From NCBI GenBank assembly GCA_022712475.1, contig JALAGK010000121.1, positions 1-12,401 of the forward strand: a stretch of 12,401 bases of DNA. The letters are read 5' to 3'. Of this stretch, positions 1 to 12,401 are shown piece after piece. The notes beneath the pieces were generated by a model. The model did not search any database. It had not been told where the DNA came from and saw only the letters and a program-made list of their open reading frames with translations. Numbering within the stretch: position 1 is the first letter of the stretch; every line of letters begins with the position of its first letter. This stretch comes from Enterobacteriaceae bacterium. Its GTDB lineage: Bacteria > Pseudomonadota > Gammaproteobacteria > Enterobacterales > Enterobacteriaceae. The position numbers and the translations under genes are program-made.

Positions 1-272
1 CCGGTGTACGTTCCGGTGAAGCACGCATGAGCGCGCACCGCAAAGCTATCATCTCAGCAAAACGTCGCATGGAATCCACCCAGTACGCCCGTGAACTGGG
101 GCTTCGCACCACTATCGATGCACTGAACTCTGAGAAAGATTATTTCAAATCCCTGAGTGAACTTGCCAGAGCGCAATACGAGTACATTGTCTCCAGTATC
201 AAACTCGCTGCGGTATCGGGCGATTTGGATTATTCGTATCTGAACAGGTTTAACTGCCCCGTACGTTCGTAA
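1..272 (+). CDS. TolC-family outer-membrane channel protein of a type I secretion system (3' end only)
   Basis: The reading frame is open from the left edge (first full codon at base 3) to TAA at 270-272, so only about the last 90 residues are present and the start lies outside. The visible part is a long amphipathic helix rich in Ala, Arg, Glu and Ser (for example SAHRKAIISAKRRMESTQYA, then SELARAQYEYIVSSIKLAAV). This is what the closing coiled-coil helix of TolC-family trimeric channels looks like, and the tail ends in CPVRS. In such systems the channel docks on the adaptor and opens an exit duct through the outer membrane. The adaptor gene starts 18 bases downstream, followed by the ABC exporter, which gives the classic channel-adaptor-exporter order. 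The family call rests on helix pattern and context, as the N-terminal two thirds cannot be seen. Confidence 0.8.
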   Translation, partial: GVRSGEARMSAHRKAIISAKRRMESTQYARELGLRTTIDALNSEKDYFKSLSELARAQYEYIVSSIKLAAVSGDLDYSYLNRFNCPVRS

Positions 273-290
273 TGTTTATGGAAGATAGCT

Positions 291-1550
291 ATGTCTGAAT
301 CACTGTTTCGCAAGGAAGCGCTTGAGGCAAACAAAACAAAAGCTATTGGCAGCGTGGCGCTTTACTGCCCGCCCTATCGCTGGGTCATTATCGGACTGGT
401 GGGACTTATCACGGTCGCGACGCTGATTTTCTGCTTCTTTGGTTCTTACACCAAACGTGAAAACGCCATTGGCGCACTTATCCCGGTAGAGGGGGTCATG
501 GATATCGTGGCGGTGAATGCCGGCACAATCACCGATCTGGCTATCCGTGAAGGCGACAGCGTGGAGAAAGGCGCTCCGCTGGTCACCATTTCTTCTGAAG
601 TGTCCACCCGGTATGGACAGACGCGTGAAACCATTGCTGAACAACTCGACCTGCAACATGGTGTGCTGGTCAGAGAGCGTGCCAACCTGACTGTGTTGTC
701 TGAGGAAACACGCAAAGGGTTACAGGACAAAAAGCGTTTACTGGAGCAGCAGCTCGCCAGTCTGAGCGACATCTATGCAAGCCGCGTACAACAGATGAAC
801 CTGGCAGCTGAAAAGCTCAATAAATATAAAATGATGCGCAAGGAAGGTTACGCCTCTAACAGCCAGGTTGAGGAGCAGGAAACCGCACGCCTTGAGGCCG
901 AGTCTCGTATTCAGGACGTGGCACGTCAGCGAATTGATCTTCAGCAACAGCTTACTCAGACGTTACAGCAGATTCGTGAGCAGCCCATCAACGAGCTTAA
1001 TCAGATTAACGATATTGAGCGGCGCATCGCCGAGCTCAAGCAGAACATGATGGAAAACGAGTCGCGCCGTTCGGTGGTATTGAACGCGCCACAAAAAGCG
1101 ACGGTGGCATCTGTGGTGGTTAAGCGTGGTCAGATTGTGGCGGCTGGCCAGACCATGGCATCTCTGCTACCAGAAAACACAGAACTACAGGCACGCATTA
1201 TGGTCAGCAGCCGCGCCATTGGTTTTATTCGCCCGGGGCAGCGTGTCGTTCTGCGCTACCAGGCCTATCCGTGGCAGAAGTTTGGCCAGCAGTTTGGCAA
1301 GGTGATCGGCGTCTCCCGAGTGGCGCTTTCTGCGCAGGAAGTCGCGCAGATAACCGGCAACAACCAGGTGCAGGAGCAGCATTATCTGGTGAAAGTAAAG
1401 CTGGATAACCAGTTTGTGAAAGCCTACGGACAGCAGGTGAGGCTCCAACCCGGTAGCGCGGTAGAGGCAGATTTTCTTATCGACAAGCGCCGGTTGTATG
1501 AGTGGGTACTTGAACCGCTTTATGCCCTTAGCCGCAGCGCGGCTTCCTGA
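291..1550 (+). CDS. CvaA/HlyD-type periplasmic adaptor (membrane fusion protein) of a type I peptide exporter
   Basis: The protein has 419 residues, close to colicin V adaptor CvaA as I recall it. A short cytoplasmic N-terminus is followed by one membrane helix at about residues 31-50 (WVIIGLVGLITVATLIFCFF). Next comes a biotinyl-lipoyl-like half domain (about 60-105, ending EGDSVEKGAPLVTI). A long coiled-coil hairpin rich in Gln, Glu and Leu spans about 120-260, then the second lipoyl half and a beta-barrel domain. The segment YQAYPWQKFGQQFGKVIGVS and the tail DKRRLYEWVLEPLY match my memory of CvaA closely. The adaptor bridges the inner-membrane ABC exporter and the TolC-type channel. The start is ATG at 291, with GGAAGA at 280-285 as ribosome binding site. 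It sits 18 bases after the channel gene and 26 before the exporter gene, so the three are surely one operon. Confidence 0.93.
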   Translation: MSESLFRKEALEANKTKAIGSVALYCPPYRWVIIGLVGLITVATLIFCFFGSYTKRENAIGALIPVEGVMDIVAVNAGTITDLAIREGDSVEKGAPLVTISSEVSTRYGQTRETIAEQLDLQHGVLVRERANLTVLSEETRKGLQDKKRLLEQQLASLSDIYASRVQQMNLAAEKLNKYKMMRKEGYASNSQVEEQETARLEAESRIQDVARQRIDLQQQLTQTLQQIREQPINELNQINDIERRIAELKQNMMENESRRSVVLNAPQKATVASVVVKRGQIVAAGQTMASLLPENTELQARIMVSSRAIGFIRPGQRVVLRYQAYPWQKFGQQFGKVIGVSRVALSAQEVAQITGNNQVQEQHYLVKVKLDNQFVKAYGQQVRLQPGSAVEADFLIDKRRLYEWVLEPLYALSRSAAS

Positions 1551-1576
1551 TAACAATAAGAAAAAAGGCTATCACA

Positions 1577-3712
1577 ATGAATTTGCTTGAAAAACTTAAC
1601 TTCTCCTGGCGCAATAAGCTGCCGGTTATTCAGCAGACCCAGGCGGCAGAGTGTGGGTTAACCTGCGTTGGCATGATTGCCAACTATTATGGTCACCGTA
1701 TCGACATGATAACCCTGCGTCGACGTTTCTCCACGTCACTCAAAGGTGCAACGCTGGGTGAGGTTATGCTGGTGTCGCAACAGCTTGGCATGTCAACGCG
1801 CGCGCTGCGCCTTGAGATAGAAGAACTGCACAAGCTGCGTTTGCCCTGCATTCTGCACTGGGATATGAATCACTTTGTGGTGCTCAAAAGCGTTTCTAAA
1901 AAGAAAATCGTGATTCATGACCCGGCACGAGGTCGCCGTGAAGTGCCACTGGACGAGGTTTCCACCTCGTTTACCGGCGTGGCGCTTGAGCTGATGCCAG
2001 CAGCGACGTTTGAGAAGAAAGAAGAGAAAGAATCGCTTTCGATGCTCAAACTTATCGGCAATGTGACGGGTATTCGTTCCGCCTTTGTGCAGGTGATGAT
2101 TCTCTCCATCGCTCTTGAGGTATTTGGCATCCTGGCGCCCTTTTATACCCAATGGGTGATGGACCAGGTGCTGCCTTCTGCCGATTACGATTTGCTGACG
2201 CTGCTGGGTTCAGCATTTATCGTTGTGATGGTGCTGCAAAACATCATTACTGCTATCCGTTCCTGGGTCACAACCTGGTTTTCCAGTATGTTGAGCGTAC
2301 AGTGGTCCGCTAACGTCTGTTCACACCTGCTTGGCCTGCCGATGTCTTGGTTTGAAGAACGGCATGTTGGCGATATTGTGTCGCGTTTTGGTTCCATCAA
2401 TACCATCCAGAACACGCTGACCAGCCGCTTTATCTCCTCGTTGCTTGATGGTGTGATGGCAATCGTGACGCTGTTTATGCTGTTTGCTTACAACGTCAAA
2501 CTGGCTTTTGTTGTGCTGGGGCTGTTCGGGCTTTACGTTATCATCCGCTGGGCGTCATTTCGCCCGTTTCGCCAGGCTAATGAAGACCAGTTGATTGCCA
2601 ATGCCCGCGCCCAGTCGCAATTACTGGAGTCTATCCGTGGCGTGCAGGCGGTGAAGCTGAATAACAAGCAGGAAATGCGAGTTTCCACGTATGCCAATGA
2701 ACTGGTTGAAGCGACTAACAAAGGCATCCATATTCAGCGGTTAACGATTGGTTTTAATACCTTACAGGGGATTATTTCCGGCGTCGGGCGCATCGTACTT
2801 ATCTGGCTCGCGGCGCTTCAGGTATTAGAAGGTAATTTTACCGGCGGGATGTTGGTGGCATTTTCGAGTTTTGCCGATCAGTTCCTCAGCCGCGCCACCG
2901 GACTGATTAACGCCATTATTGAGTTCTGGATGCTGCGCTTGCACGGCGAACGTCTGGCCGATATTGTACTGACGGATAAAGAAGGCGATATGGACAACGC
3001 CGTGGCGCTGCCCGGTGAGCAGAAGGCGTTTGCCGTTGAAGTGCACAATCTCTCTTTCCGTTATGCACCCACTGAACCCTGGGTGTTTGAGAACTGTACG
3101 CTGAGTATCCACTCAGGTGAATCGGTGGCGATTATCGGCCCCTCCGGGCAGGGTAAATCGACGTTGGTGAAGCTGTTACTGGGATTACTCAAGCCACAAC
3201 GTGGTGCGATTGAGGTTAACGGCCAGGACATCCGTAAACTGGGGATGACCTGGTATCGTGACAAAATTGGTAGCGTTATGCAGGACGATATTTTGTTTGC
3301 GGGCTCAATTGCTGACAACATTAGCTTCTTTGATGCGAATTACAGTCAGGAACAGGTGGAGCGGGCGGCAATGCTGGCACAGATCCATGACGATATTATG
3401 TTAATGCCGATGGCTTATAATAGTCTGGTGGGCGATATGGGGTCTTCATTGTCCGGCGGGCAGATGCAGCGCGTGCTACTGGCACGTGCGTTATACCGCA
3501 GGCCTGAGATCCTGATTCTCGACGAAGCCACCAGCCACCTTGATGTTAATCGCGAGAGCGCAATCAATACCGCTATTCGTGATATGAACATCACGCGTAT
3601 TATTATTGCCCATCGCCCGGAAACCATTCGTAGCGCCGATCGTATCATATTGCTTAATAAAGATGGTGTTCAGGAGATCTCTCACGAGATGTTTGACCAG
3701 CATATTCAGTAA
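1577..3712 (+). CDS. Peptidase-containing ABC exporter (C39 double-glycine peptidase, CvaB type)
   Basis: The protein has 711 residues and three parts. Residues 1-130 are a C39 cysteine peptidase: Gln20 (oxyanion hole) in QTQAAECGLTC, catalytic Cys26, His99 in MNHFVVL and Asp115 in IHDPARG, so the whole active site is kept. Residues about 160-450 are the exporter membrane domain with several hydrophobic helices. Residues about 480-711 are the ATPase: Walker A GPSGQGKST (521-529), signature LSGGQ (625-629), Walker B ending Asp649-Glu650, and switch His679. Known members of this family cut leader peptides after a GG pair and export the mature peptide in one step. It is therefore not an RTX-toxin exporter, which lacks the catalytic Cys. 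The only GG-leader genes in view lie at 12092 and 12344, far downstream. The ATG at 1577 has a weak AAAAAAGG upstream. Confidence 0.96.
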   Translation: MNLLEKLNFSWRNKLPVIQQTQAAECGLTCVGMIANYYGHRIDMITLRRRFSTSLKGATLGEVMLVSQQLGMSTRALRLEIEELHKLRLPCILHWDMNHFVVLKSVSKKKIVIHDPARGRREVPLDEVSTSFTGVALELMPAATFEKKEEKESLSMLKLIGNVTGIRSAFVQVMILSIALEVFGILAPFYTQWVMDQVLPSADYDLLTLLGSAFIVVMVLQNIITAIRSWVTTWFSSMLSVQWSANVCSHLLGLPMSWFEERHVGDIVSRFGSINTIQNTLTSRFISSLLDGVMAIVTLFMLFAYNVKLAFVVLGLFGLYVIIRWASFRPFRQANEDQLIANARAQSQLLESIRGVQAVKLNNKQEMRVSTYANELVEATNKGIHIQRLTIGFNTLQGIISGVGRIVLIWLAALQVLEGNFTGGMLVAFSSFADQFLSRATGLINAIIEFWMLRLHGERLADIVLTDKEGDMDNAVALPGEQKAFAVEVHNLSFRYAPTEPWVFENCTLSIHSGESVAIIGPSGQGKSTLVKLLLGLLKPQRGAIEVNGQDIRKLGMTWYRDKIGSVMQDDILFAGSIADNISFFDANYSQEQVERAAMLAQIHDDIMLMPMAYNSLVGDMGSSLSGGQMQRVLLARALYRRPEILILDEATSHLDVNRESAINTAIRDMNITRIIIAHRPETIRSADRIILLNKDGVQEISHEMFDQHIQ

Positions 3713-3734
3713 GTGTCCTTCCTTTTGAAACCTG

Positions 3735-3770
3735 AAACGGCAGCTTCTCAACTCGAGGGCTGTCGTTTTT
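3735..3770 (+). terminator. Intrinsic terminator of the secretion operon
   Basis: Arms 3737-3744 (ACGGCAGC) and 3759-3766 (GCTGTCGT) pair over 8 bp with one G-U pair. The stem can be extended by A-T pairs into the flanking A and T runs. The loop is 14 bases and is followed directly by TTTTT at 3766-3770. It starts 22 bases after the exporter stop codon, so transcription of the exporter operon should mostly end before the fimbrial genes. Confidence 0.85.
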
Positions 3771-4477
3771 ATTGGGCTATTTCAGACGCGTTATCTTCTT
3801 TTAAGGACTGGAGTCTGCACAGGCAAATATCACAAAGTTAGCTATTTTTTCTCTTCTTTGCCAGGAATTAAGAATTAATAACATTGCTTTTTTCTTTTTC
3901 ACTGCATCAATAAGTGCCTGCTTGCTCACATTATCACAAAGAGATTATTTATTTTGTACATTTATGTGCGACTATTCTTATCATTTCTTGTTAACCTGCC
4001 AGTGATAGCAATTTCCTTGTTGAGCGCGGGTGTGCTGCTGTTATTGTATCGACCGAGTTACCGTTACGTGCGTTTCTGCTGATTGATTTTTGTGCTTAAT
4101 TTAAGAGCTTTCAGCTAAATATCATCCAGATGTCTTATTGCCTTTTTTTTTACTGCCAAAATATTGTTCGTAATGTCCTTGATAGGACTTTTCCTTTCCA
4201 TTCGCGAGATAAAAAATTGGTAATAACATGTATGCGAGGTTTTAACTCGCATTTTGCTGTATGGGTACGCCATGCTTTTAAGGATAATTGTGTTTTGATA
4301 GCATTTTCTTAGCTCAACGGAGTGGGCCAATAATTACAGCTGCAAACACCGCTAAGATTATCAGACCTGAACTCTGTTGACGTAAAACAGGGGCTTCTAA
4401 ACGCCGCATGCATTATGTATTGCCGGCTTTATCGCTCTTTATTTCTTAGGATATTAGTTTACTACGCAGGAATTTTT
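3771..4477. other. AT-rich intergenic region upstream of the fimbrial operon, no convincing gene
   Basis: About 700 bases, visibly richer in A and T than the flanking genes, with T tracts such as T9 at 4142-4150. Short open frames at 4130-4312 (+) and 4115-4330 (-) overlap one another, lack ribosome sites and encode nothing recognisable. Two small hairpins are visible: 4175-4188 (GTCCT/AGGAC, loop TGAT, then TTTT), and 4232-4252 (ATGCGAG/CTCGCAT, 7 perfect pairs). The region must contain the fimbrial promoter. A TTGACG at 4377-4382 lies within CTGTT...AACAG symmetry, but I could not pair it with a good -10 box. There is no GATC anywhere between 3713 and 4477, so a Dam-methylation switch as in pap is not supported. 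I see no clear long inverted repeats of a fim-type invertible promoter. Confidence 0.7.
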
Positions 4478-5014
4478 ATGAAACTGAATAAAGTAGCTAT
4501 GGCTGTGGCATTTACTGCTGCTCTGGGTTCTGCATCTGTACTGGCTGCTGATGGCACCACTAACGGCGTAATCGAGCTGAAAGGTGAGCTGGTAAGCACG
4601 CCTTGCGGCCTGGCTGTTGAGTCAAGCCCGGTTGTTGTTGATTTCGGTCAGCGTCCGATCCACGAGTTTGCAAACCAGGCACGTGTTGGTAACGTACAGA
4701 AGAGCATCGTTCTGCAGGACTGCGACGCAACTACCGCGGGCAGCGCTGTTGTAACTTACACCCCGACCTCTGTTGATCCGTCTAACGAAGCTCTGGCAGC
4801 CTTCACCTCTGGTACCGCGACTGGCGCAGGTATCGGCCTGGTAGACAGCGGCAACCAGACTGTTAAGTGGGGCGAAGCGACCTCTGCTGTTAAACTGGTT
4901 GATGGCAAAAACACCATCCCGTTCGTAGCATTCCTGCAGGCTGACACTGCTACCACCGTACCGACCGCAGGTGACTTCCAGTCTACCATTAACTTCTCTA
5001 TCGCTTACCAGTAA
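4478..5014 (+). CDS. Major fimbrial subunit (pilin), chaperone-usher type
   Basis: The protein has 178 residues from ATG 4478. An upstream in-frame ATG at 4415 was rejected because it would add 21 residues that spoil the signal peptide. CAGGAA at 4467-4472 also serves ATG 4478. The signal peptide is residues 1-23 (cut after SASVLA). The mature protein has the pilin fold marks: an N-terminal donor strand region (GTTNGVIELKGELV), the disulfide pair Cys43-Cys82, and an alternating C-terminal strand ending FSIAYQ. It should polymerise by donor-strand exchange to form the rod. Position first in the operon, near-exclusive use of favoured codons (CTG, GGT, AAC, CCG, CGT) and the strong hairpin just behind the gene all point to the major subunit. 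It is Ala/Thr/Val-rich and not obviously identical to PapA or FimA. Confidence 0.93.
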   Translation: MKLNKVAMAVAFTAALGSASVLAADGTTNGVIELKGELVSTPCGLAVESSPVVVDFGQRPIHEFANQARVGNVQKSIVLQDCDATTAGSAVVTYTPTSVDPSNEALAAFTSGTATGAGIGLVDSGNQTVKWGEATSAVKLVDGKNTIPFVAFLQADTATTVPTAGDFQSTINFSIAYQ

Positions 5015-5032
5015 TCGATGTGAAGTGTGCTG

Positions 5033-5052
5033 TGCGGGGGGGAACCCCCGCA
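5033..5052 (+). promoter_or_regulatory. Stable GNRA-loop hairpin behind the major pilin gene
   Basis: Arms 5033-5040 (TGCGGGGG) and 5045-5052 (CCCCCGCA) form 8 perfect pairs, six of them G-C or C-G in a row next to the loop. The loop is GGAA, a GNRA tetraloop. It starts 18 bases after the major pilin stop codon. There is no T run behind it, so it is not a standard terminator. By analogy with the papA-papH junction, where a hairpin protects the pilin message, it probably stabilises the upstream transcript or limits read-through, keeping the major pilin in excess. Confidence 0.75.
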
Positions 5053-5095
5053 TTATATGAAAGTGGAATCAGGAACAAGGATCGTGGGTGCTACT

Positions 5096-5647
5096 ATGGA
5101 ATTAAAAAAGCAAAGCATTCTTCCGCTTTATTTATTATCCACCCTGCTTTTTTCTGGCCATGCCTTTGCCACTACTTTCCTTCCGTTAGAGGGGGAAGTG
5201 GATGCGCGAGGGGAACTTATTGAAGCTGCTTGCAGCATCGACAACCTGCATCGCGATATATTAGTTGAGTTTGGCGATATTTCTGCCCGTGATGTTAAAG
5301 AAGAAGGCGAAGATGTTTTAATTCGACCTTTTACGGTTCGCTTAACTGGATGTACAGCGACAGATTTAGGTAATGGTTTATTGCGTTATCCCTACGCGTC
5401 AGTGACATTTATTGGTGAGACGACGAATGAAGATCCCACTGCATTACTGACAAACGGAAAAGGGCTGGGAATACGCCTGCAAGATAGAAACGGTGATACT
5501 TTAACATTTGGACAGCCGTCTCCCGGTTATGCACTGAGTAGTGAGAAAAACATATTACGATTTACTGCCTCGGTGGTTCCGGTCCAGAAAAATGTTCAGG
5601 CTGGCGAATTCTATGCAACTGCCCGCTTTTTTATGGATTACAACTAA
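5096..5647 (+). CDS. Minor fimbrial subunit, PapH-like (probable rod terminator or anchor)
   Basis: The protein has 183 residues from ATG 5096. The signal peptide is about 1-25 (ends GHAFA). The mature part has a pilin-type cysteine pair (AACSID and LTGCTAT), the segment VTFIGETTNEDP and a C-terminal strand ending RFFMDYN, similar in kind to the PapH ending as I recall it. Lying between the major pilin and usher genes is the papH position. PapH caps the rod base and stops growth, so that role is inferred here. The start is uncertain: GTG at 5084 has AGGAACAAGG just upstream (5071-5080) and would add four residues, while ATG 5096 has only GGTG in front of it. The codon use is clearly more A/T-rich and less optimised than the major pilin, fitting low expression. 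Confidence 0.85.
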   Translation: MELKKQSILPLYLLSTLLFSGHAFATTFLPLEGEVDARGELIEAACSIDNLHRDILVEFGDISARDVKEEGEDVLIRPFTVRLTGCTATDLGNGLLRYPYASVTFIGETTNEDPTALLTNGKGLGIRLQDRNGDTLTFGQPSPGYALSSEKNILRFTASVVPVQKNVQAGEFYATARFFMDYN

Positions 5648-5655
5648 AACAACAT

Positions 5656-5680
5656 ATACGTAGCGGGATGCTTCACGTAT
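5656..5680 (+). promoter_or_regulatory. Small hairpin between the PapH-like and usher genes
   Basis: ATACGT (5656-5661) pairs with ACGTAT (5675-5680), and inside it AGC (5662-5664) pairs with GCT (5670-5672), leaving a two-base bulge and a loop of five. It is not followed by T residues. It may tune usher expression or may be chance. Confidence 0.3.
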
Positions 5681-5708
5681 TCCGGTGATTGATTCGGGAT
5701 GAATAATC

Positions 5709-8186
5709 ATGTCGGTAAAATTAAAAACCAAGTTAACTATAATTGCCGCGCAGGTAATTATGGTCTGCTATGCGCCAGCGGCTTTAGCAGATGATAGCGT
5801 TGAGTTTAACGTCGATGTGCTTGATGCAGCAGATCGCAGCCATGTCGATTTATCCCGATTCGCAACGGATAACTACGTCACCCCGGGAAGTTACCTGCTT
5901 GATATTAAGATCAACTCCAGATCTGTAGGGCAGTCCAAAATTGAATATGTTGCAAGCGAAGACGGCAAAAGCAGCCGTGCATGTATTAATGAGGACTTGC
6001 TGACCAAGCTGGCGCTGAAGGATGAAGTCCGCGCCAAAGTCATGCCGATTTATGAAAACTGCTACACCCTCGACAGTGTTCCTGGTGCAAGAATCAGTAA
6101 CGCTGCGGGTGTACTTGATATTGTGGTTCCTCAGGCTTGGATGAAATACAACGATCCGGACTGGACCCCGCCCGAGCGCTGGGACAGCGGTATTGCGGGC
6201 GTTATTTTTGACTACAGCCTGACCGGGCAGGTCACTCGTCGTTTCAAGAGCGGGTCTGATGATTACAGCTCAGTGTCAGGTTATGGCCAGGCGGGTTTCA
6301 ACGCCGGCGGCTGGCGTGTACGCGGTGAATACCAGACCAATTACGACAGCGATCAGCGCAAGTACGATTTTACCTGGAACCAGTTCTACGCTTATCGTCC
6401 GCTGCCTACGATGGCCGCCAAACTGACGCTGGGTGAAATTTATCTCAACTCGCAGGTGTTTGATACGGTGCGCTTTACCGGGGCTAACCTGGCGAGCGAT
6501 GAGCGTATGCTGCCGCCAAGCCTGCGTGGTTATGCGCCGGAAATTCACGGCGTAGCGCGTACCAACGCCAAAGTGACCGTGATGCAAAGCGGGCGCACCA
6601 TCTATGAAACGACGGTGGCAGCGGGTCCATTTAACATCCAGGACTTGCATAACTCCGTGCGCGGTACCCTGGATGTGCGTGTTGAAGAACAGGATGGCTC
6701 AGTGTCCACCTTCCAGGTGAATACCGCCAACATCCCGTACCTGACGCGTCCTGGCTACGTGCGCTACAACATCGCGGGCGGTGCGCCGTCTCGCTATAAC
6801 CACCGTATTCAGGGGCCTGGCTTTGTGGCCGGTGATTTCTCCTGGGGTGTGTCTAACGCGTGGTCACTCTATGGCGGTCTGATGACGGCGGGTAAAGCGT
6901 ATACCGCGTTATCTGCAGGTATTGGTCGTGACCTGAGCGTGTTCGGTGCGTTGTCGTTTGATGCTACGGAGTCCTGGAGTGAACTGCCAGGACAAAACCG
7001 CATCTGGGGAACATCTTACAAGCTGAGTTACGCGAAGACGTTTGATGAATACAACAGCTCCATTACCTTCGCAGGCTATCGCTTCTCTGAGCGCGATTTC
7101 CGTACCCTGTCGCAGTACCTGGACGAACGTTACCAGGGCTACGACAACATCGGTCGCGAAAAAGAGATGTACACCATTACCGGTAGTAAAACGTTCTTTG
7201 CTGACGATCCACGTTTGGCAACGACGCTGTTCCTGACTTACACCCACCAGAACTACTGGAACCGCGGCAGTCAGGACAGATACGGTTTCTCCGTTGGCCG
7301 CAGCTTTAAGGTGGGCAACGTACGCGGTATCACCGCAAACGTGTCGGCCTATCGCTCGGACTACAACGGCAAGAACGATGATTCTATCTCGTTCAGATTG
7401 TCGATTCCGGTGGGTGACGGTAACCGTTGGGCAGGCCTCGATGTCCAGACGAGCAATGGCAAAACCAGCCCGATGGCGTCGTACACCGACAACAGTGATT
7501 ACAACAACCTGTGGCGCGTACGTGCCGGGGCAAGTCAGGACGGTTATGCCAACGTTGACGGCTACTATCGCCATCGTTCGCAGTGGGCAGAGGTCAACAC
7601 CACCGCCAGCTATCAACACAATAACTACCTTTCTGCCAGCGCAACGTTGCGCGGTGGTTTGACGGCAACACGGCATGGCGCAGCGCTGCATAACAGTAGC
7701 GCTTCATCAAATACCGCACGTGTGATGGTAGACACCAATGGTATCGGCGGTGTGCCGCTGAACAATGGTAAAGCGATCACGAACAACTTTGGTATCGCCG
7801 TTGTGCCGGATATCGTCAGCTACAACAACTTTGATACTCGAGTAGATGTAGATGCAATGGATGGCAACATTGAAGCGTCCAAAGCAATCAGTACCTCGGT
7901 ATTGACGGAAGGGGCCATTGGTTACCAGGCGTTTGGTATGTCGAAAGGCAACCGGGTAATGGGCACGCTGCGTCTGGCAGACCATAGTACGCCGCCGTTT
8001 GGCGCAGAAGTTTACAACAAAGATGGCGTGAGCGTTGCCATGGTCCTGGAAGAAGGTAAAGCCTGGCTTTCCGGGGTCAATCCGAACGAAACGCTGAAAG
8101 TGAACTGGGGCGGAAAAACCCAGTGTGAAGTCACGATGCCGGCAACGCTTGTCGACGCGTCAACTGTGCTGCTGCCGTGTCGCTAA
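5709..8186 (+). CDS. Outer-membrane fimbrial usher, PapC-like
   Basis: The protein has 825 residues, the usual usher length. The signal peptide is 1-27 (ends APAALA). The N-terminal periplasmic domain starts VEFNVDVLDAADRSHVDLSR, nearly the PapC start as I recall it, with the pair Cys92-Cys118. A 24-strand barrel follows. It is interrupted at about 285-345 by the plug domain (TNAKVTVMQSGRTIYE to the PYLTRPG strand). The middle has the motif FAGYRFSERDF, also seen in PapC. The C-terminal domain carries TEGAIGYQAFG, RLADHSTPPFGAEV and the closing pair Cys806-Cys824. The usher accepts chaperone-subunit complexes and threads the growing pilus to the surface. Similarity throughout is to the P-pilus class rather than FimD or MrkC. 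The ribosome site before ATG 5709 is weak (GGGATGAA at 5696-5703). Confidence 0.96.
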   Translation: MSVKLKTKLTIIAAQVIMVCYAPAALADDSVEFNVDVLDAADRSHVDLSRFATDNYVTPGSYLLDIKINSRSVGQSKIEYVASEDGKSSRACINEDLLTKLALKDEVRAKVMPIYENCYTLDSVPGARISNAAGVLDIVVPQAWMKYNDPDWTPPERWDSGIAGVIFDYSLTGQVTRRFKSGSDDYSSVSGYGQAGFNAGGWRVRGEYQTNYDSDQRKYDFTWNQFYAYRPLPTMAAKLTLGEIYLNSQVFDTVRFTGANLASDERMLPPSLRGYAPEIHGVARTNAKVTVMQSGRTIYETTVAAGPFNIQDLHNSVRGTLDVRVEEQDGSVSTFQVNTANIPYLTRPGYVRYNIAGGAPSRYNHRIQGPGFVAGDFSWGVSNAWSLYGGLMTAGKAYTALSAGIGRDLSVFGALSFDATESWSELPGQNRIWGTSYKLSYAKTFDEYNSSITFAGYRFSERDFRTLSQYLDERYQGYDNIGREKEMYTITGSKTFFADDPRLATTLFLTYTHQNYWNRGSQDRYGFSVGRSFKVGNVRGITANVSAYRSDYNGKNDDSISFRLSIPVGDGNRWAGLDVQTSNGKTSPMASYTDNSDYNNLWRVRAGASQDGYANVDGYYRHRSQWAEVNTTASYQHNNYLSASATLRGGLTATRHGAALHNSSASSNTARVMVDTNGIGGVPLNNGKAITNNFGIAVVPDIVSYNNFDTRVDVDAMDGNIEASKAISTSVLTEGAIGYQAFGMSKGNRVMGTLRLADHSTPPFGAEVYNKDGVSVAMVLEEGKAWLSGVNPNETLKVNWGGKTQCEVTMPATLVDASTVLLPCR

Positions 8187-8225
8187 TCACGGATGAACAG
8201 CGATATATCTCAGGAGTAAGAGGAA

Positions 8226-8969
8226 ATGAGTATGAAAAAGTTTAACCGTTGCGCAGTTGCCGCAGTCGTTTTTAGCATGTTTTGTGGTTATGCACAGGCG
8301 GGCATTTCCCTCGACCGTACTCGCCTGATTATCACGGAAAAAGATATGTCCTCCAGCGCCAACCTCACGAACACGTCACCTGAGGTGCCGTTCCTGGCGC
8401 AGTCCTGGATTGAAGATGCTAACGGCCAAAAAATTACCTCGCCGCTGGTAGTGTTGCCGCCATTGCAGCGCATTAACGGCGGTCAGAAAGGCATTGCCCG
8501 CGTAACGAAAACCGACGGTATTTCTGCGCTGCCAGCAGACAGAGAGAGCCTGTTCTATCTCAACGTGCGTGAAATTCCGCCGAAATCAGACAAGCCTAAC
8601 GTCCTTCAACTGGCGATGCAGACCCGTATCAAGTTGTTCTATCGCCCAACGGCAATTATTCCCGATAAGCGTAGCGCAGTCTGGCAGGATCAGATGGTGT
8701 TTGAGAAGCGCGGCTCAAGTATGACGGCGCAGAACCCAACGCCTTACTACATCACTATTCTTGGCCTGAGCAAAGGTGCCGGGCAGAAGATAACCGACTT
8801 CCCCGGGATTATGGTTCCGCCTAAATCCAGCCTGGACTTTAAAGTCTCAGACGGTGGTGTGAGCGAGTTCAAGATGATGTACGTGAACGACTACGGTGGC
8901 CATCCGGAACTGACTTATCGTTGCTCAGGGAATACCTGCAAGGCATTACCGCCGGCGCAACAGGGCTAA
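8226..8969 (+). CDS. Periplasmic fimbrial chaperone, PapD-like
   Basis: The protein has 247 residues. The signal peptide ends GYAQA at residue 25. The mature start GISLDRTRLII puts Arg33 at mature position 8, the anchor Arg8 of PapD. Lys136 in QTRIKLFYRP is the partner of PapD Lys112. Both grip the subunit C-terminus during donor-strand complementation. The segments DRESLFYLNVREIPPKS and ENPTPYYVT-like QNPTPYYITILGL mark the two immunoglobulin-like domains. The final pair in YRCSGNTCK matches the PapD C-terminal disulfide. The start could be ATG 8226 (AGGAG at 8212-8216) or ATG 8232, which has AGAGGA seven bases upstream and gives the cleaner signal MKKFNRC. It follows the usher by 39 bases. 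Confidence 0.96.
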   Translation: MSMKKFNRCAVAAVVFSMFCGYAQAGISLDRTRLIITEKDMSSSANLTNTSPEVPFLAQSWIEDANGQKITSPLVVLPPLQRINGGQKGIARVTKTDGISALPADRESLFYLNVREIPPKSDKPNVLQLAMQTRIKLFYRPTAIIPDKRSAVWQDQMVFEKRGSSMTAQNPTPYYITILGLSKGAGQKITDFPGIMVPPKSSLDFKVSDGGVSEFKMMYVNDYGGHPELTYRCSGNTCKALPPAQQG

Positions 8970-8988
8970 TTAATCGAGGAGTCCGACA

Positions 8989-9612
8989 ATGCAAAACAAA
9001 TTACCGTTATTCGCAATTCTGGCCGCCGGTTTTTCATTCCAGGCAACGGCTGATATTTCAGCATCGCCGCTGCACAGCGATCCGGATCATATTAAAGAAG
9101 ACAGTGGCATTGTGCGGTTTCACGGCAACGTATTCGCATCACCGTGTGTGCTCTCTTCTGAAAGTCGTTTTCAGGATGTGAGCCTCGGCGATATTAGCGC
9201 GCGCACTTTTCACAATGCGGGTGACCGCAGCCAGCCGGTGACGTTTAAAGTCTACCTGAAGGACTGCCTGAAAGGGGCTGCAACCTATCGCAACAACATT
9301 GCGGCATCACAAACGGGTCAGGAGTGGCGCACTTACACCACCAGTGAGCAGGCAGTACAGATGACCTTTATTGGTGAGTCTGATCCCGGCAATAGTTCAC
9401 TTCTGCGTACCACCGGTTCGTCGTTTGGCGCCGGTCTGCGTTTGATGAGCGTTGACGGTAAGCCATATGTCCTGAACCAGACGCAGGCGCCCTATTTGGT
9501 GAAAACCGGCGACAGCGTACTGACATTCCAGGCCGCCCTCGAGTCGACGGACAGCACCGTCACCGCCGGAGAGTTTAGCGGACTGATGCGTATCAAGATG
9601 GAGTATCTGTGA
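8989..9612 (+). CDS. Minor fimbrial subunit
   Basis: The protein has 207 residues, longer than a typical pilin. The signal peptide is about 1-21 (ends FQATA). An acidic stretch follows, then the pilin pair Cys53-Cys93 (ASPCVLS, LKDCLKG). The C-terminal strand ends MRIKMEYL. It shares local phrases with the PapH-like gene upstream (LGDISAR against FGDISAR, MTFIGESDPG against VTFIGETTNEDP), so the two may be paralogues. An insertion of about 20 residues (about 98-118) after the second Cys is unusual. ATG 8989 has a strong GAGGAG at 8976-8981. It sits 19 bases after the chaperone and touches the adhesin gene, so it is probably a tip or adaptor subunit. Its place in the fibre is inferred only. 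Confidence 0.87.
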   Translation: MQNKLPLFAILAAGFSFQATADISASPLHSDPDHIKEDSGIVRFHGNVFASPCVLSSESRFQDVSLGDISARTFHNAGDRSQPVTFKVYLKDCLKGAATYRNNIAASQTGQEWRTYTTSEQAVQMTFIGESDPGNSSLLRTTGSSFGAGLRLMSVDGKPYVLNQTQAPYLVKTGDSVLTFQAALESTDSTVTAGEFSGLMRIKMEYL

Positions 9613-10712
9613 TGAAAGCATCAGGCGTGTTTAGCCGCAAAAGTTGCGTTGCCTGTGCGCTGGCGCTGGCTCTGTTCCCCGCAGGCGCGTGGGCGGCGTT
9701 TATTGATGGTGAGGTTATCCCGGTAAACCGAAATACCCATATTTATAACGTAAAACTGGACAGTCAGACTATCACCAACAATACGGCAGGGGCGACGGCT
9801 GAAGCAACGTTCTCGCTTCAGGATACTTATGATGCAGTCGCCTTTTGTAGTGTGAACCGCAGTGGTCAGCCGATTTGGTTTGAGGGTAGATCCACTGCTG
9901 GAGCAGGGGCGGATGGTTGGGTGACTTTGAATGAATATATGGATGCCCAAGTTTCTATCCATATAGAAGGTGAGGGCAACGGCCTGCTTAGCGTTCCTTT
10001 TCCGGCAACGTCTAACAAGATGAACAAAAATATATGTCGAGCCGCGCAGGGCGCAACGGAAGAAGGTTATCCGCTTTCAAACGTTTTTGGTTCGGGCTCC
10101 CAAGGAAAGGTCACGTTCAGGCTACGTAAGCCGCTTATCAACGGTATTACCATCACAGGTACCGAAGTGGCTGAAGTGTTTGGTCGCCTTGAGGCGGGGG
10201 ACGGCATCATGGGCCCAACACCGCTGGCAAGGGTGGTTATAGACCAGGCGATTATTACCGTGCCCGATAAGTGTGTTGTCAACGACGGTGAGCCGGTCAT
10301 GGTGGATTTCGGCCAAATTCCGAACTCTGCCGCTGCGATTGAGAAGAATGCTCCAGCTATGCCTGTTGATATCAGAGTGAAGTGTGAAGGCGGGAGTTTT
10401 GCAACGCCTAATGCGAAAGTCAGGATTGGGATATTGCAAGGGAGTCCGGCCAGCTTTAATAGCGATTATTTAAGTACGACAGGTCCTGTCGATCGCAGTG
10501 ATTTAGGTATTTCGTTAACGGACAATACAACCAATCAGCAGGTTGTGCCAAATACGCTTTATGATTTTATTGATTTAAATACTACTACGGGTGGGCCTGG
10601 GCCTTTCGAGGGTCTTTGGAGTTTAACTGCGAAACCCGTAGCTAAGTCAGGAACCATGATTCCGGAAGGGGACTTCGAAGCCTCTGCCACCATTGTGACG
10701 GTGTTTGAGTGA
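9612..10712 (+). CDS. Two-domain tip adhesin of the fimbria
   Basis: The protein has 366 residues, about twice a pilin, as for tip adhesins such as PapG, FimH and MrkD. The signal peptide is about 1-28 (ends PAGAWA). The N-terminal domain (about 29-210) is rich in Thr, Asn and Gly with one cysteine pair, Cys79 and Cys142, and should carry receptor binding. The pilin domain (about 215-366) starts VPDKCVVNDGEPVMVDFG with the pair Cys221-Cys258 and ends SATIVTVFE. ATG 9612 overlaps the TGA of the previous gene (TGATG), so translation is coupled. An in-frame GTG at 9609 is a less likely start. I do not recognise the lectin domain, so the receptor is unknown. Codon use becomes more A/T-rich toward the 3' end (about 10430-10620), perhaps from recombination. 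Confidence 0.88.
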   Translation: MKASGVFSRKSCVACALALALFPAGAWAAFIDGEVIPVNRNTHIYNVKLDSQTITNNTAGATAEATFSLQDTYDAVAFCSVNRSGQPIWFEGRSTAGAGADGWVTLNEYMDAQVSIHIEGEGNGLLSVPFPATSNKMNKNICRAAQGATEEGYPLSNVFGSGSQGKVTFRLRKPLINGITITGTEVAEVFGRLEAGDGIMGPTPLARVVIDQAIITVPDKCVVNDGEPVMVDFGQIPNSAAAIEKNAPAMPVDIRVKCEGGSFATPNAKVRIGILQGSPASFNSDYLSTTGPVDRSDLGISLTDNTTNQQVVPNTLYDFIDLNTTTGGPGPFEGLWSLTAKPVAKSGTMIPEGDFEASATIVTVFE

Positions 10713-10718
10713 TACTGT

Positions 10719-10734
10719 TTCCCTAAGGAGGGAA
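10719..10734 (+). promoter_or_regulatory. Small hairpin over the ribosome binding site of the last pilin gene
   Basis: TTCCCT (10719-10724) and AGGGAA (10729-10734) pair perfectly over 6 bp with a four-base loop AAGG. The structure covers the near-perfect ribosome site AAGGAGG (10725-10731) of the gene starting at 10736. It could limit translation unless ribosomes arriving from the adhesin gene, which stops at 10712, open it. Confidence 0.45.
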
Positions 10735-10735
10735 T

Positions 10736-11308
10736 ATGCGTTTAAGGATGATGAGTTTAGTTTTCGCAGCAGCTGTTCCACTCTCTGCGCCGGTATGGGC
10801 AGCAGGGGAAATCCAGGCTGGTGATATTACGTTTACGGGAACGGTTGTGGGCCTGCCTTGCCTTATTGAGACCAATAGCGAACACCTGACTGTGTCGTTT
10901 GACCAGATTGGTTTACGCGATCTTTACGCTGGTGCTGATAACGGCACGAAAGCAAATGCAAAAGATTTTACGATTAAGTTGGTTGATTGCTCTCCTGCGG
11001 TTTCTCAGGGTGTGACCGTGACTTTCACCGGTGATTCAGACCCGGAATTGGCACAATTTTTGGCAATCAAAGCGGCTGACTCAGGTGCAGGGGAGAGCGC
11101 ATCGGGTATTGCTATCGGTATTATCGAAGCCGATGATGGCGCGCTGATTCCGTTGGGCCAGGCAAGCAAGTCTCAGGTTATTAACGGGCTGACTGCAGAT
11201 CTAAACTATAAAGCTTACGTTCGCGGCACGCCAAGTGCATTACAGGACAGATCGATAACGACCGGTAACTTCACCGCAACGGCAAACTTTGAGTTGACCT
11301 ACCAGTAA
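10736..11308 (+). CDS. Minor fimbrial subunit (pilin-like, last structural gene)
   Basis: The protein has 190 residues. The signal peptide is 1-22 (ends APVWA). The mature part starts AGEIQAGDITFTGTVVGLPC, a donor-strand region leading into the first pilin cysteine. The pair is Cys42-Cys85 (GLPCLIE, LVDCSPA). The segment TVTFTGDSDPELAQFL and the ending TATANFELTYQ are standard pilin features, and the ending resembles the PapK ending as I recall it. It could be an adaptor between the rod and adhesin or another tip-fibre subunit. Being placed after the adhesin gene differs from pap, where the adhesin gene is last. The ribosome site AAGGAGG at 10725-10731 is excellent but lies in a small hairpin. 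Confidence 0.9.
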   Translation: MRLRMMSLVFAAAVPLSAPVWAAGEIQAGDITFTGTVVGLPCLIETNSEHLTVSFDQIGLRDLYAGADNGTKANAKDFTIKLVDCSPAVSQGVTVTFTGDSDPELAQFLAIKAADSGAGESASGIAIGIIEADDGALIPLGQASKSQVINGLTADLNYKAYVRGTPSALQDRSITTGNFTATANFELTYQ

Positions 11309-11332
11309 CAGAATATCGACAGGGATGGTGCG

Positions 11333-12010
11333 ATGAAATATCAATGTTTCCTATACGATCAAAACATGTTTTTTTCCGAGGGGATAAAAGCGGTTATTCT
11401 GGAGCAATTTGGAAAATCGGGTGATATTTCATACGCCAGCTCTGACCACTTTTCTGAACTGATTGATGAGCTCAATGTAAAGAATAACGGCAGCGATGAG
11501 CGCTGGGTATTGTGCGACCTGGAAAGTTTTCCGCACGATCGCTTTAGCGCATTGAGTATTGTGAAGGAATGTTATCAGAAGCAGGATCAAAAACTGGTTA
11601 TGCTGCTGAGTGAAAATAATATTCCGCTCTTTTTTGCCTTGTATTCTTTGCTGCCTGAGGCAAACTGGTTACTGAAAAACGAATCGCTCTACCACTTCGT
11701 TTCATTCTTTCGGGATTTACGTGAAGTGGAGCCAAAATCACGCTGCTTTAGCCATTCACTGGTTAATTACACGCGCATGAAATGGCTGTCTGACAATGCG
11801 GAATGCAGTATTTCCAGCAATGAGTGGTGGTTGATGGAAGAGATATTTAAAGGCAAGTCGCTTTCGCAGATCTCCAACGAAGTGGATGTAGATATCCGTA
11901 AATTGAGTTACCACAAAAGACGTTTAATGCGTAAGCTTAACGTCAGAAACAATATCGATTTATTTAATGCCTTTCGCTGTATTGTGGCCACGCCACAACT
12001 GGCAGGATGA
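11333..12010 (+). CDS. LuxR-type transcription regulator with degenerate receiver domain, probable fimbrial or cargo regulator
   Basis: The protein has 225 residues. The C-terminal part (about 160-216) is a LuxR/GerE helix-turn-helix: SNEWWLMEEIFKGKSLSQIS, then a recognition helix with KLSYHKRRLMRKLNVRN (His194, Lys201). The N-terminal part reads like a response-regulator receiver: Asp9 in FLYDQNMFFSEG, Asp62 in VLCDLESF at the phosphate-acceptor position, Ser93, and Lys115 in NWLLKNES. The second acidic residue of the usual pair is replaced by Gln10, so phosphorylation is uncertain. It starts 24 bases after the last pilin gene with AGGGATGG ahead of it and no terminator between, so it is probably the last gene of the fimbrial transcript and may feed back on it. 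LuxR-type regulators such as FimZ and FimW control other fimbriae. The targets here are inferred. Confidence 0.87.
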   Translation: MKYQCFLYDQNMFFSEGIKAVILEQFGKSGDISYASSDHFSELIDELNVKNNGSDERWVLCDLESFPHDRFSALSIVKECYQKQDQKLVMLLSENNIPLFFALYSLLPEANWLLKNESLYHFVSFFRDLREVEPKSRCFSHSLVNYTRMKWLSDNAECSISSNEWWLMEEIFKGKSLSQISNEVDVDIRKLSYHKRRLMRKLNVRNNIDLFNAFRCIVATPQLAG

Positions 12011-12018
12011 ATTTAAGT

Positions 12019-12040
12019 TTGCTGGCAATTGCGCCAGCAA
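12019..12040 (+). promoter_or_regulatory. Hairpin between the regulator and the first cargo gene
   Basis: TTGCTGGC (12019-12026) and GCCAGCAA (12033-12040) pair perfectly over 8 bp with a six-base loop, starting 8 bases after the regulator stop. No T run follows on either strand, so it is at best a weak terminator. It may define an mRNA end, as a processing or stability element, before the highly expressed small gene. Confidence 0.55.
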
Positions 12041-12091
12041 GGCAATGGAAACATTGTGAATTGTAACTAAAGCTAAGGAAATGGATAAACC

Positions 12092-12307
12092 ATGAACAAA
12101 ATCAATACTTTTGAAGCAGCAAACGTTGTTGGTGGTACCGCGCAGGACTGCGTGTACACCTACGAATCTATCATTATCGGTAGCGGACGCGAGTCTTGCC
12201 GTCTGGTTGCTAGCTGCACCGACAAAAAAGGCAACCTGACTCAGTCTTTTGCTGATGTAGACAACAGCGCTTGCAGCGTTATTCACTATGATATATTAGT
12301 TAAATAA
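12092..12307 (+). CDS. Small secreted protein with double-glycine leader (probable exporter cargo, DUF4762-like)
   Basis: The protein has 71 residues. The first 15 are a double-glycine leader, MNKINTFEAANVVGG. Counted back from the GG cut it has Ile at -12, Glu at -8, Val at -4 and Gly at -2 and -1. It has the same length and spacing as the colicin V leader. The mature part would be 56 residues with four cysteines (20, 36, 42, 61), enough for two disulfides. It has more acidic than basic residues and no long hydrophobic helix, so it does not look like a class II microcin. Small enterobacterial proteins with this leader are, from memory, in family DUF4762 of unknown function. The codons are strongly favoured types, suggesting high expression. 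AAGGAA at 12075-12080 lies 11 bases before ATG. The C39 exporter at 1577-3712 is the obvious candidate partner. Confidence 0.85.
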   Translation: MNKINTFEAANVVGGTAQDCVYTYESIIIGSGRESCRLVASCTDKKGNLTQSFADVDNSACSVIHYDILVK

Positions 12308-12343
12308 GTTTAATAATTTTAAAGCTTACTCCAATAAATAACA

Positions 12344-12401
12344 ATGAAAAACATCAATACTATTGAAGCAGCAGCAATTGTTGGTGGTATCGCAGCAGGC
12401 C
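12344..12401 (+). CDS. Second small protein with double-glycine leader (5' end only, cut by window edge)
   Basis: Nineteen codons are visible: the leader MKNINTIEAAAIVGG followed by IAAG, then the window ends. The leader matches that of the gene 252 bases upstream in 10 of 15 positions, keeping Ile at -12, Glu at -8, Ile at -4 and the GG. The first mature residues differ. No clear ribosome binding site precedes ATG 12344 (the preceding bases are A/T-rich), so either initiation is weak or the structure upstream matters. An A/T-rich imperfect hairpin spans 12305-12328, overlapping the stop of the first cargo gene. This is a second, probably paralogous, cargo. Confidence 0.75.
   Translation, partial: MKNINTIEAAAIVGGIAAG

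What the first reader, a model, noticed from the sequence alone, without database searches (positions are those of the whole stretch)
1..12401. A double-glycine peptide secretion system split around a fimbrial operon
A complete C39-peptidase exporter with adaptor and channel lies on the left, and two genes with matching double-glycine leaders lie on the right. A Pap-like pilus operon and a LuxR-type regulator separate them. No other GG-leader gene was seen next to the exporter. Seen: intact Cys26/His99/Asp115 and two leaders with the spacing of the colicin V leader. Known: such peptidases cut after GG. Inferred: the exporter secretes these cargos, and the peptides act together with, or are co-regulated with, the pilus (for example in adhesion, biofilm or competition at surfaces).
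Basis: partly seen in the sequence, partly recalled or inferred. Interest (0 to 1): 0.8.

Follow-up and report, generated by a model that had tools for sequence, protein, structure and literature searches.

The report
Pilus-linked peptide operon with lipid genes

Summary
The window is a whole contig of a fragmented genome and holds the junction of two modules. The right-hand GG-leader genes are DUF4762 propeptides. In close relatives, and in part on another contig of this genome (C431), they lead into an operon: DsbA-like oxidase, PatA/LpxM-fold acyltransferase, a second C39 exporter, MacA, MacB, NodT channel, ketoacyl synthase, dehydratase, acyl carrier protein and ketoreductase. In 295 Enterobacteriaceae genomes, 29 of 29 with DUF4762 carry that second exporter type (one decayed) and 7 of 29 carry the left exporter; 7 of 14 left-exporter genomes lack DUF4762. 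Left-type exporters elsewhere often have their own GG peptides with a different leader. The pilus link survives: 30 of 32 assessable cassettes have an usher gene within 21 kb (about 9% expected). Outside the family, GG peptide, acyltransferase, C39 exporter and MacAB stay together without the fatty-acid genes, which suggests, but does not show, that the peptide is acylated. Best reading: two-step secretion of a disulfide-bonded, perhaps lipid-modified peptide that works with pili. My literature searches found no description of it.

The parts
3..272 (+). C-terminal end of TolC-like outer-membrane channel (truncated by contig start), module 1
   Evidence: PF02321 33.5 bits; full-length 443-aa ortholog in L004 5580-6911
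291..1550 (+). HlyD-type adaptor of the left exporter, module 1
   Evidence: PF13437; TIGR01843 below its cut-off
1577..3712 (+). Left C39-peptidase ABC exporter, C-H-D triad, module 1; probably not the DUF4762 exporter
   Evidence: PF03412/PF00664/PF00005; C-H-D in 32 of 33 left-type rows, the other row cut at a locus end; distribution
3713..4414 (+). A+T-rich gap; 13 of 28 left-type loci (neither of the two of this genus) have a GG-type ORF within 1.5 kb after the exporter, none is seen here
   Evidence: two of the 28 loci are the same place
4415..5014 (+). Fimbrial subunit, module 2 (true start probably about 4478, my reading)
   Evidence: PF00419
5027..5647 (+). Fimbrial subunit, module 2
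   Evidence: PF00419
5709..8186 (+). Outer-membrane usher, module 2
   Evidence: PF00577 500.9 bits; ushers >=67% identical lie beside DUF4762 in 16 of 17 genomes; the exception G106 has neither DUF4762 nor the operon-type exporter, its usher being on a 7.1-kb contig
8226..8969 (+). Periplasmic pilus chaperone, module 2
   Evidence: PF00345/PF02753
8989..9612 (+). Fimbrial subunit, module 2
   Evidence: PF00419
9609..10712 (+). Long fimbrial protein, likely tip adhesin (inferred), module 2
   Evidence: PF00419 on residues 213-363 only; StgD/LpfD-like, far below cut-off
10736..11308 (+). Fimbrial subunit, module 2
   Evidence: PF00419
11333..12010 (+). LuxR-type DNA-binding regulator, module 2
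   Evidence: PF00196 32.1 bits; kept between window-type fimbria and DUF4762 in relatives
12092..12307 (+). DUF4762 propeptide 1: 15-aa GG leader and core with the four invariant cysteines
   Evidence: PF15959 53.3 bits; alignments A3, A4
12344..12401 (+). DUF4762 propeptide 2, truncated by contig end
   Evidence: sequence; full copies L004:18921-19109 and L146:2265-2456

Best explanation
Two modules meet in this window. Module 1 (TolC-HlyD-C39, left) is a separate exporter whose neighbours elsewhere often include a different class of GG peptides. Module 2 is the fimbrial operon, its LuxR-type regulator and the DUF4762 propeptides. In relatives it continues into DsbA-like oxidase, PatA/LpxM-fold acyltransferase, a second C39 exporter, MacA, MacB, NodT channel and a ketoacyl synthase/dehydratase/ACP/ketoreductase set; in this genome the part from the C39 gene on is on contig C431. 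Proposed mechanism: the second exporter (Cys-His-Asn peptidase) cuts the propeptide after GG and moves the core to the periplasm; the anchored DsbA-like protein closes the disulfides of the four invariant cysteines; the acyltransferase puts on a chain built by the dedicated ACP set; MacAB-NodT expels the product, which acts at the cell surface together with the pilus. Shown: gene content, order, conservation, predicted acyltransferase fold, co-occurrence. Inferred: cognate export, disulfides, acylation, two-step route, pilus-related function.
For: Operon in the same genus (L146) and on own contig C431, 90.3% DNA identity to L146 over 9.7 kb. 29 of 29 DUF4762 genomes carry this C39 type at >=49% identity (G162's in pieces); the 3 further genomes with it are G253 (a diverged DUF4762 gene), G035 (a 2-Cys GG peptide, exporter interrupted) and G286 (no peptide found). 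Acyltransferase: AF2 mean pLDDT 81; Foldseek PatA E 1e-9 (TM 0.55 on the query), LpxM E 1.5e-8 (0.47). Outside the family GG peptide, acyltransferase, C39, MacA and MacB lie together in 2 of 2 loci, with no fatty-acid or DsbA genes found in the stretches read. DsbA-like gene in 30 of 30 cassettes with DUF4762 cores of 4-6 Cys (split in G162), in 0 of 4 with 0-2 Cys peptides. Usher within 21 kb in 30 of 32 assessable cassettes against 8.8% expected.
Against: No experiment. In this genome the acyltransferase is not found and no DsbA-like gene was seen on the two contigs; they would fall in the assembly gap. The left exporter is in the same genome in all four members of the genus and next to the fimbria in them, and co-occurs with DUF4762 above chance, so a genus-specific use is not excluded. 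ACP-bound chains are cytosolic, so acylation would have to precede export, or the target is not the peptide. The acyltransferase motif is H-x3-D, not the H-x4-D/E I recall for LpxL. 2 of 33 cassettes have no usher near and usher types differ; G106 has the window-type usher without the cassette. On 6 E. coli and Salmonella plasmid records examined no GG peptide was found beside the cassette, and the cassettes of G286 and Chimaeribacter have none that I could find.
Confidence: 0.6

Rival explanations
1. One reading: the left TolC-HlyD-C39 exporter cuts and secretes the DUF4762 peptides across the fimbrial operon.
For: Present in all four genomes of the genus and beside the same fimbria in G017, G163 and G249; intact triad; no other GG peptide seen beside it here; co-occurrence above chance (p 9e-5).
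Against: 22 of 29 DUF4762 genomes lack it and 7 of 14 exporter genomes lack DUF4762, while 29 of 29 have the operon's own C39 type. Its relatives have their own GG-type ORFs with different leaders in 13 of 28 loci. In G042, G016 and G162 the two lie at separate places. Outside the genus the overlap is 3 of 25 (p 0.045).
Confidence: 0.09
2. The fatty-acid and acyltransferase genes make a separate surface lipid (aryl-polyene-like or a lipid A change) exported by MacAB; the peptide is an independent co-regulated product such as a signal.
For: PatA and LpxM, the nearest folds, act on lipids (fold; function recalled); KS, DH, ACP and KR were found with the acyltransferase in the cassettes read far enough.
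Against: In L248 and L249 the acyltransferase lies with a GG peptide, C39 and MacAB and no fatty-acid genes were found; one KS only, and none of the starter genes I recall from aryl polyene clusters was recognised.
Confidence: 0.2
3. DUF4762 peptides are bacteriocins (class II microcin-like); the pilus neighbourhood is incidental.
For: GG leader and dedicated C39 exporter, as in class II microcins (recalled; start of the abstract of PMC10233263 seen in a listing).
Against: No annotated operon gene looks like an immunity gene, though small ORFs were not searched for one; repeated linkage to several usher types; oxidase and acyl genes are not standard microcin parts (recalled).
Confidence: 0.2

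Closest known systems
Aat system with CexE/dispersin (PMC7943197: abstract, outline and passages seen)
   Same: Small secreted protein, MacA/MacB-homologous exporter parts and an acyltransferase; dispersin works with AAF/II fimbriae (start of abstract of PMC7315649 seen in a listing).
   Different: Aat cargo has a Sec signal and an acylated N-terminal Gly; AatD is an Lnt homolog. Here a GG leader, C39 exporter, PatA/LpxM-fold enzyme, ACP set and DsbA-like protein.
Class II microcin export (C39-ABC, HlyD, TolC; recalled)
   Same: GG leader and C39 exporter.
   Different: The peptide operon has MacA/MacB/NodT, no recognised immunity gene, and oxidase and acyl genes; its C39 triad is C-H-N in 37 of 37 rows (some genomes appear twice).
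Pyoverdine route PvdE then PvdRT-OpmQ (recalled)
   Same: Inner-membrane exporter to periplasm, maturation there, then MacAB-like export.
   Different: Product here is a ribosomal peptide, not a nonribosomal siderophore.
Aryl polyene clusters (recalled)
   Same: KS, DH, ACP, KR and an LPLAT-type acyltransferase together.
   Different: No starter genes or MMPL exporter recognised; tied to a GG peptide and C39 exporter.

Membership tests
DUF4762 (PF15959) | Match above the Pfam cut-off of 27 bits | tested here: met
   53.3 bits for 12092-12304
C39-processed GG-leader peptides | Short leader ending in GG | tested here: met
   GG at 14-15 invariant in A3 (26 rows) and A4 (37 rows)
C39-processed GG-leader peptides | Own C39 exporter in the same operon | tested here: met
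   gene order in relatives; exporter on own contig C431
Class II microcin | Dedicated immunity gene | tested here: inconclusive
   none recognised among annotated operon genes; small unknown ORFs not searched
Class II microcin | Kills related bacteria | not testable with these tools
   needs an assay
Aat/CexE lipoprotein secretion | Lnt-type acyltransferase (AatD) | tested here: not met
   predicted fold matches PatA and LpxM
Aat/CexE lipoprotein secretion | Sec-exported cargo with N-terminal Gly | tested here: not met
   GG leader, first core residue varies; no signal-peptide program was run
Aat/CexE lipoprotein secretion | MacA/MacB-like exporter with outer-membrane channel | tested here: met
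   MacB_PCD and FtsX domains; MacA-like 298.8 bits, below its 342 cut-off; NodT 229.9 bits over 210.05
LPLAT acyltransferases (LpxL/PatA) | Fold and conserved His-acidic motif | tested here: inconclusive
   fold met; PF03279 over cut-off in 2 of 7 homologs scanned, those two chosen because a precomputed match was listed; motif is H-x3-D
Chaperone-usher fimbriae | Usher, chaperone, several subunits | tested here: met

The most novel reading that the evidence does not exclude
A class of ribosomal peptides, with a GG leader and usually disulfide-bonded, that are acylated by a PatA/LpxM-fold enzyme with chains from a dedicated fatty-acid line, leave the cell in two steps (C39 exporter, then MacAB-NodT), and serve as lipid-anchored partners of chaperone-usher pili. 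The minimal unit is GG peptide, acyltransferase, C39, MacA and MacB; oxidase, fatty-acid genes and pilus were added in Enterobacterales, and the cassette also moves on plasmids of E. coli and Salmonella.
Probability: 0.38. Interest if true: 0.85.

Novelty: new variant of a known kind. Interest (0 to 1): 0.62.

Why it matters
It gives an unnamed domain family, DUF4762, a testable role and partners. If the acyl step is real, it adds a new enzyme type that lipidates ribosomal peptides, and a new way for small surface peptides and pili to be made together. It also shows how contig edges can create a false exporter-cargo pairing.

Tried and rejected
Considered that the left exporter serves DUF4762: rejected on distribution and leader class, with low residual probability. 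Considered that the right genes are chance ORFs with a GG motif: rejected (PF15959). Searched ten genomes, four of this genus, with one of the left exporter's usual peptides: in this genus none in G000 and only weak hits in the other three (E 4e-5 or worse, two of six with a stop inside), none at the exporter. Sequence profile of the acyltransferase against solved structures gave no useful hit, so a fold comparison was used. DUF4762 model (mean pLDDT 67, core near 80; three strands and a helix) had no PDB match with E <= 0.001. Blastn of a 3.1-kb cassette piece in E. coli genomes found nothing, although diverged copies sit on E. coli plasmids by protein search. Literature: DUF4762 0 papers, PF15959 0; combinations of system parts gave 0 papers or listings in whose titles and abstract openings I saw nothing on this system; only the open part of PubMed Central was searched, 9 of 10 searches used.

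Full report
What is in the window. The window is the whole of contig C409 of a fragmented genome (601 contigs, 73% complete). Left: the last 89 residues of a TolC-like channel, a HlyD-type adaptor and a C39-ABC exporter with Cys26/His99/Asp115. Middle: a chaperone-usher operon of seven genes, then a LuxR-type regulator. Right: one complete DUF4762 gene (53.3 bits, cut-off 27) and the first 19 codons of a second.

What lies beyond the edge. In the same genus, G017 (locus L146) shows the continuation: DUF4762 twice, DsbA-like protein, a 316-aa protein, a second C39-ABC exporter, MacA-like, MacB-like, NodT-type channel, FabF-like synthase, a 257-aa protein, ACP and ketoreductase. The 257-aa protein is below the MaoC cut-off in G017 (15.7 bits), but its ortholog in L147 is just above it (28.1 against 27). 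In the window's own genome contig C431 holds this series from within the C39 gene to the ketoreductase, at 90.3% DNA identity to L146 over 9.7 kb. The acyltransferase is not found in this genome and no DsbA-like gene was seen on the two contigs; both would fall between them.

Which exporter belongs to the peptides. I searched a drawn sample of 295 Enterobacteriaceae genomes with each query. DUF4762 (PF15959, E <= 0.001) is in 29 of 295. The operon-type C39 exporter at >=49% identity (the next match is at 30%) is in 32, including all 29; in G162 it is in pieces. The three others: G253 has a diverged DUF4762 gene, G035 a GG peptide with two cysteines and an interrupted exporter, and G286 no peptide that I could find. 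The left exporter at >=65% identity (the next full-length match is at 48%) is in 14 of 295; 7 of these have DUF4762, four of them from this genus; G050 has a 315-residue piece at 66% and no DUF4762 and was not counted. Fisher p is 4e-37 for the operon exporter and 9e-5 for the left one; without the genus the left one has 3 of 25 and p 0.045. So a weak excess of the left exporter remains, against my reading. Left-type loci elsewhere often carry GG-type ORFs just downstream: 13 of 28 loci, two of the 28 being the same place. The scan asked for M followed by K, R or E and G[GA] at 13-20 residues. Their leaders have S or A at -3 in 18 of 20 ORFs (two of the 20 look like non-genes and were kept) and I, V or L at -7 in 14 of 20; DUF4762 leaders have V or I at -3 in 36 of 37 and A at -7 in 35 of 37 (the window peptide and 36 of the 72 proteins, picked by me). 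The peptidase triads differ too: C-H-D in 32 of 33 left-type rows, the other row being cut at a locus end, and C-H-N in 37 of 37 operon-type rows, some genomes appearing twice.

The acyltransferase. The 316-aa family is mostly below the PF03279 cut-off; 2 of the 120 listed homologs carried a precomputed match, and of 7 scanned those two passed. A model from a 46-sequence alignment (mean pLDDT 81) matches mycobacterial PatA (E 1e-9, TM 0.55 on the query, about 12% identity) and LpxM (E 1.5e-8) in the PDB. In the APLHxxSD motif A, P, H, S and D are invariant in the 30-row alignment. Public names vary between 'ABC transporter', 'lysophospholipid acyltransferase' and 'lauroyl/myristoyl acyltransferase'.

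The core unit and its accessories. In 394 genomes sampled from the order, 9 have the acyltransferase at E <= 1e-15; two are outside the family. In both (L248, L249) a GG-leader gene sits just upstream and C39, MacA and MacB follow; fatty-acid genes and DsbA were not found in the stretches read. Their peptides have 0 and 2 cysteines. Counting cassettes with a readable peptide, DsbA-like genes occur in 30 of 30 with DUF4762 cores of 4-6 cysteines, one of them split in the decayed G162 cassette, and in 0 of 4 with 0-2 cysteines (L181, L204, L248, L249). G286 and Chimaeribacter have neither DsbA nor a peptide that I found. E. coli plasmid cassettes have DsbA and no peptide that I found. The pattern fits an oxidase for the peptide, and an acyltransferase tied to the peptide-export route rather than to the fatty-acid genes alone.

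The pilus link. For 33 cassettes in 32 genomes I looked for usher genes nearby. Thirty have one within 21 kb of the peptide gene: 16 window-type and 2 of another type upstream at 3.4-4.3 kb, one upstream at 10.8 kb, and 11 downstream at 14.6-20.9 kb. Two have none in the stretches read (G286 and the second G070 cassette); G074 ends on a 14-kb contig and cannot be judged. The 31 genomes counted (without G000) hold 316 ushers, which gives about 8.8% by chance for that distance. Relatives are not independent, but ushers of at least three types by best-matching query are involved. In the reverse direction, ushers >=67% identical to the window's are beside DUF4762 in 16 of 17 genomes; G106, 99% complete, has the usher on a 7.1-kb contig and no DUF4762 or operon-type exporter, so it is a likely exception. 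Left-type exporters lie within the same 20-kb stretch as another usher type in 6 of the 10 further genomes read.

Mobility. Fourteen plasmid records match the acyltransferase: 10 E. coli, 2 Salmonella, 1 Chimaeribacter, 1 Serratia; 9 are predicted conjugative. I read 8 of the 14. In the six from E. coli and Salmonella I found no peptide gene beside the cassette. Insertion-sequence genes are annotated upstream in L201 and L238; in others the transposase-like scraps are my reading. The Serratia copy (L204) has another gene order and a 2-cysteine GG peptide.

How it most likely works. The C39 exporter trims and moves the peptide; the membrane-anchored DsbA-like protein oxidises it; the acyltransferase, fed by the dedicated ACP, acylates it; MacAB-NodT expels it. 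The nearest described system I know is Aat, where MacA/MacB homologs and an acyltransferase secrete CexE after glycine acylation (PMC7943197; abstract, outline and passages seen). Here the cargo class and the acyltransferase differ, so this is a likeness, not membership. The order of acylation and export, the acylated residue and the surface role are open.

Noticed in passing
L004 1-4585, L005 2611-6291, L149 1520-4873: Large autotransporters (PF03797) lie on the opposite strand on the TolC side of the left exporter in relatives; possible further surface partner.
   Followed up: no
L129, L133, L141, L143: Extra DUF4762 genes with no cassette in the 20 kb read, all in genomes that also have a cassette; possible second cargos.
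   Followed up: partly
operon-type C39 exporters (L113-L147, L182, L183, L201, L203, L205): Third catalytic residue is Asn, not Asp, in 37 of 37 rows, the order C-H-N known from papain (recalled).
   Followed up: partly
L201, L202, L205, L236, L237, L238: Cassette on E. coli and Salmonella plasmids with no recognisable GG peptide beside it; the L202 copy has C39, MacB and NodT in pieces.
   Followed up: partly
L006-L008, L014, L015, L021, L022, L207, L208, L211: Left-type exporters elsewhere sit with GG peptides, many glycine-rich and microcin-like in look (my reading), often near another chaperone-usher operon.
   Followed up: partly
L140 (G162): Decayed cassette: C39, MacB, NodT, synthase and DsbA genes are in pieces while the DUF4762 gene stays open.
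   Followed up: no
L234 (G106 contig C96): Window-type usher and chaperone on a 7.1-kb contig of a genome without DUF4762 or the operon-type exporter.
   Followed up: no
P0125: A DUF4762 protein named Salmonella Choleraesuis has a longest contig of 4,261,890 bp, the size of G011's, a genome outside this genus; the label may be wrong.
   Followed up: no
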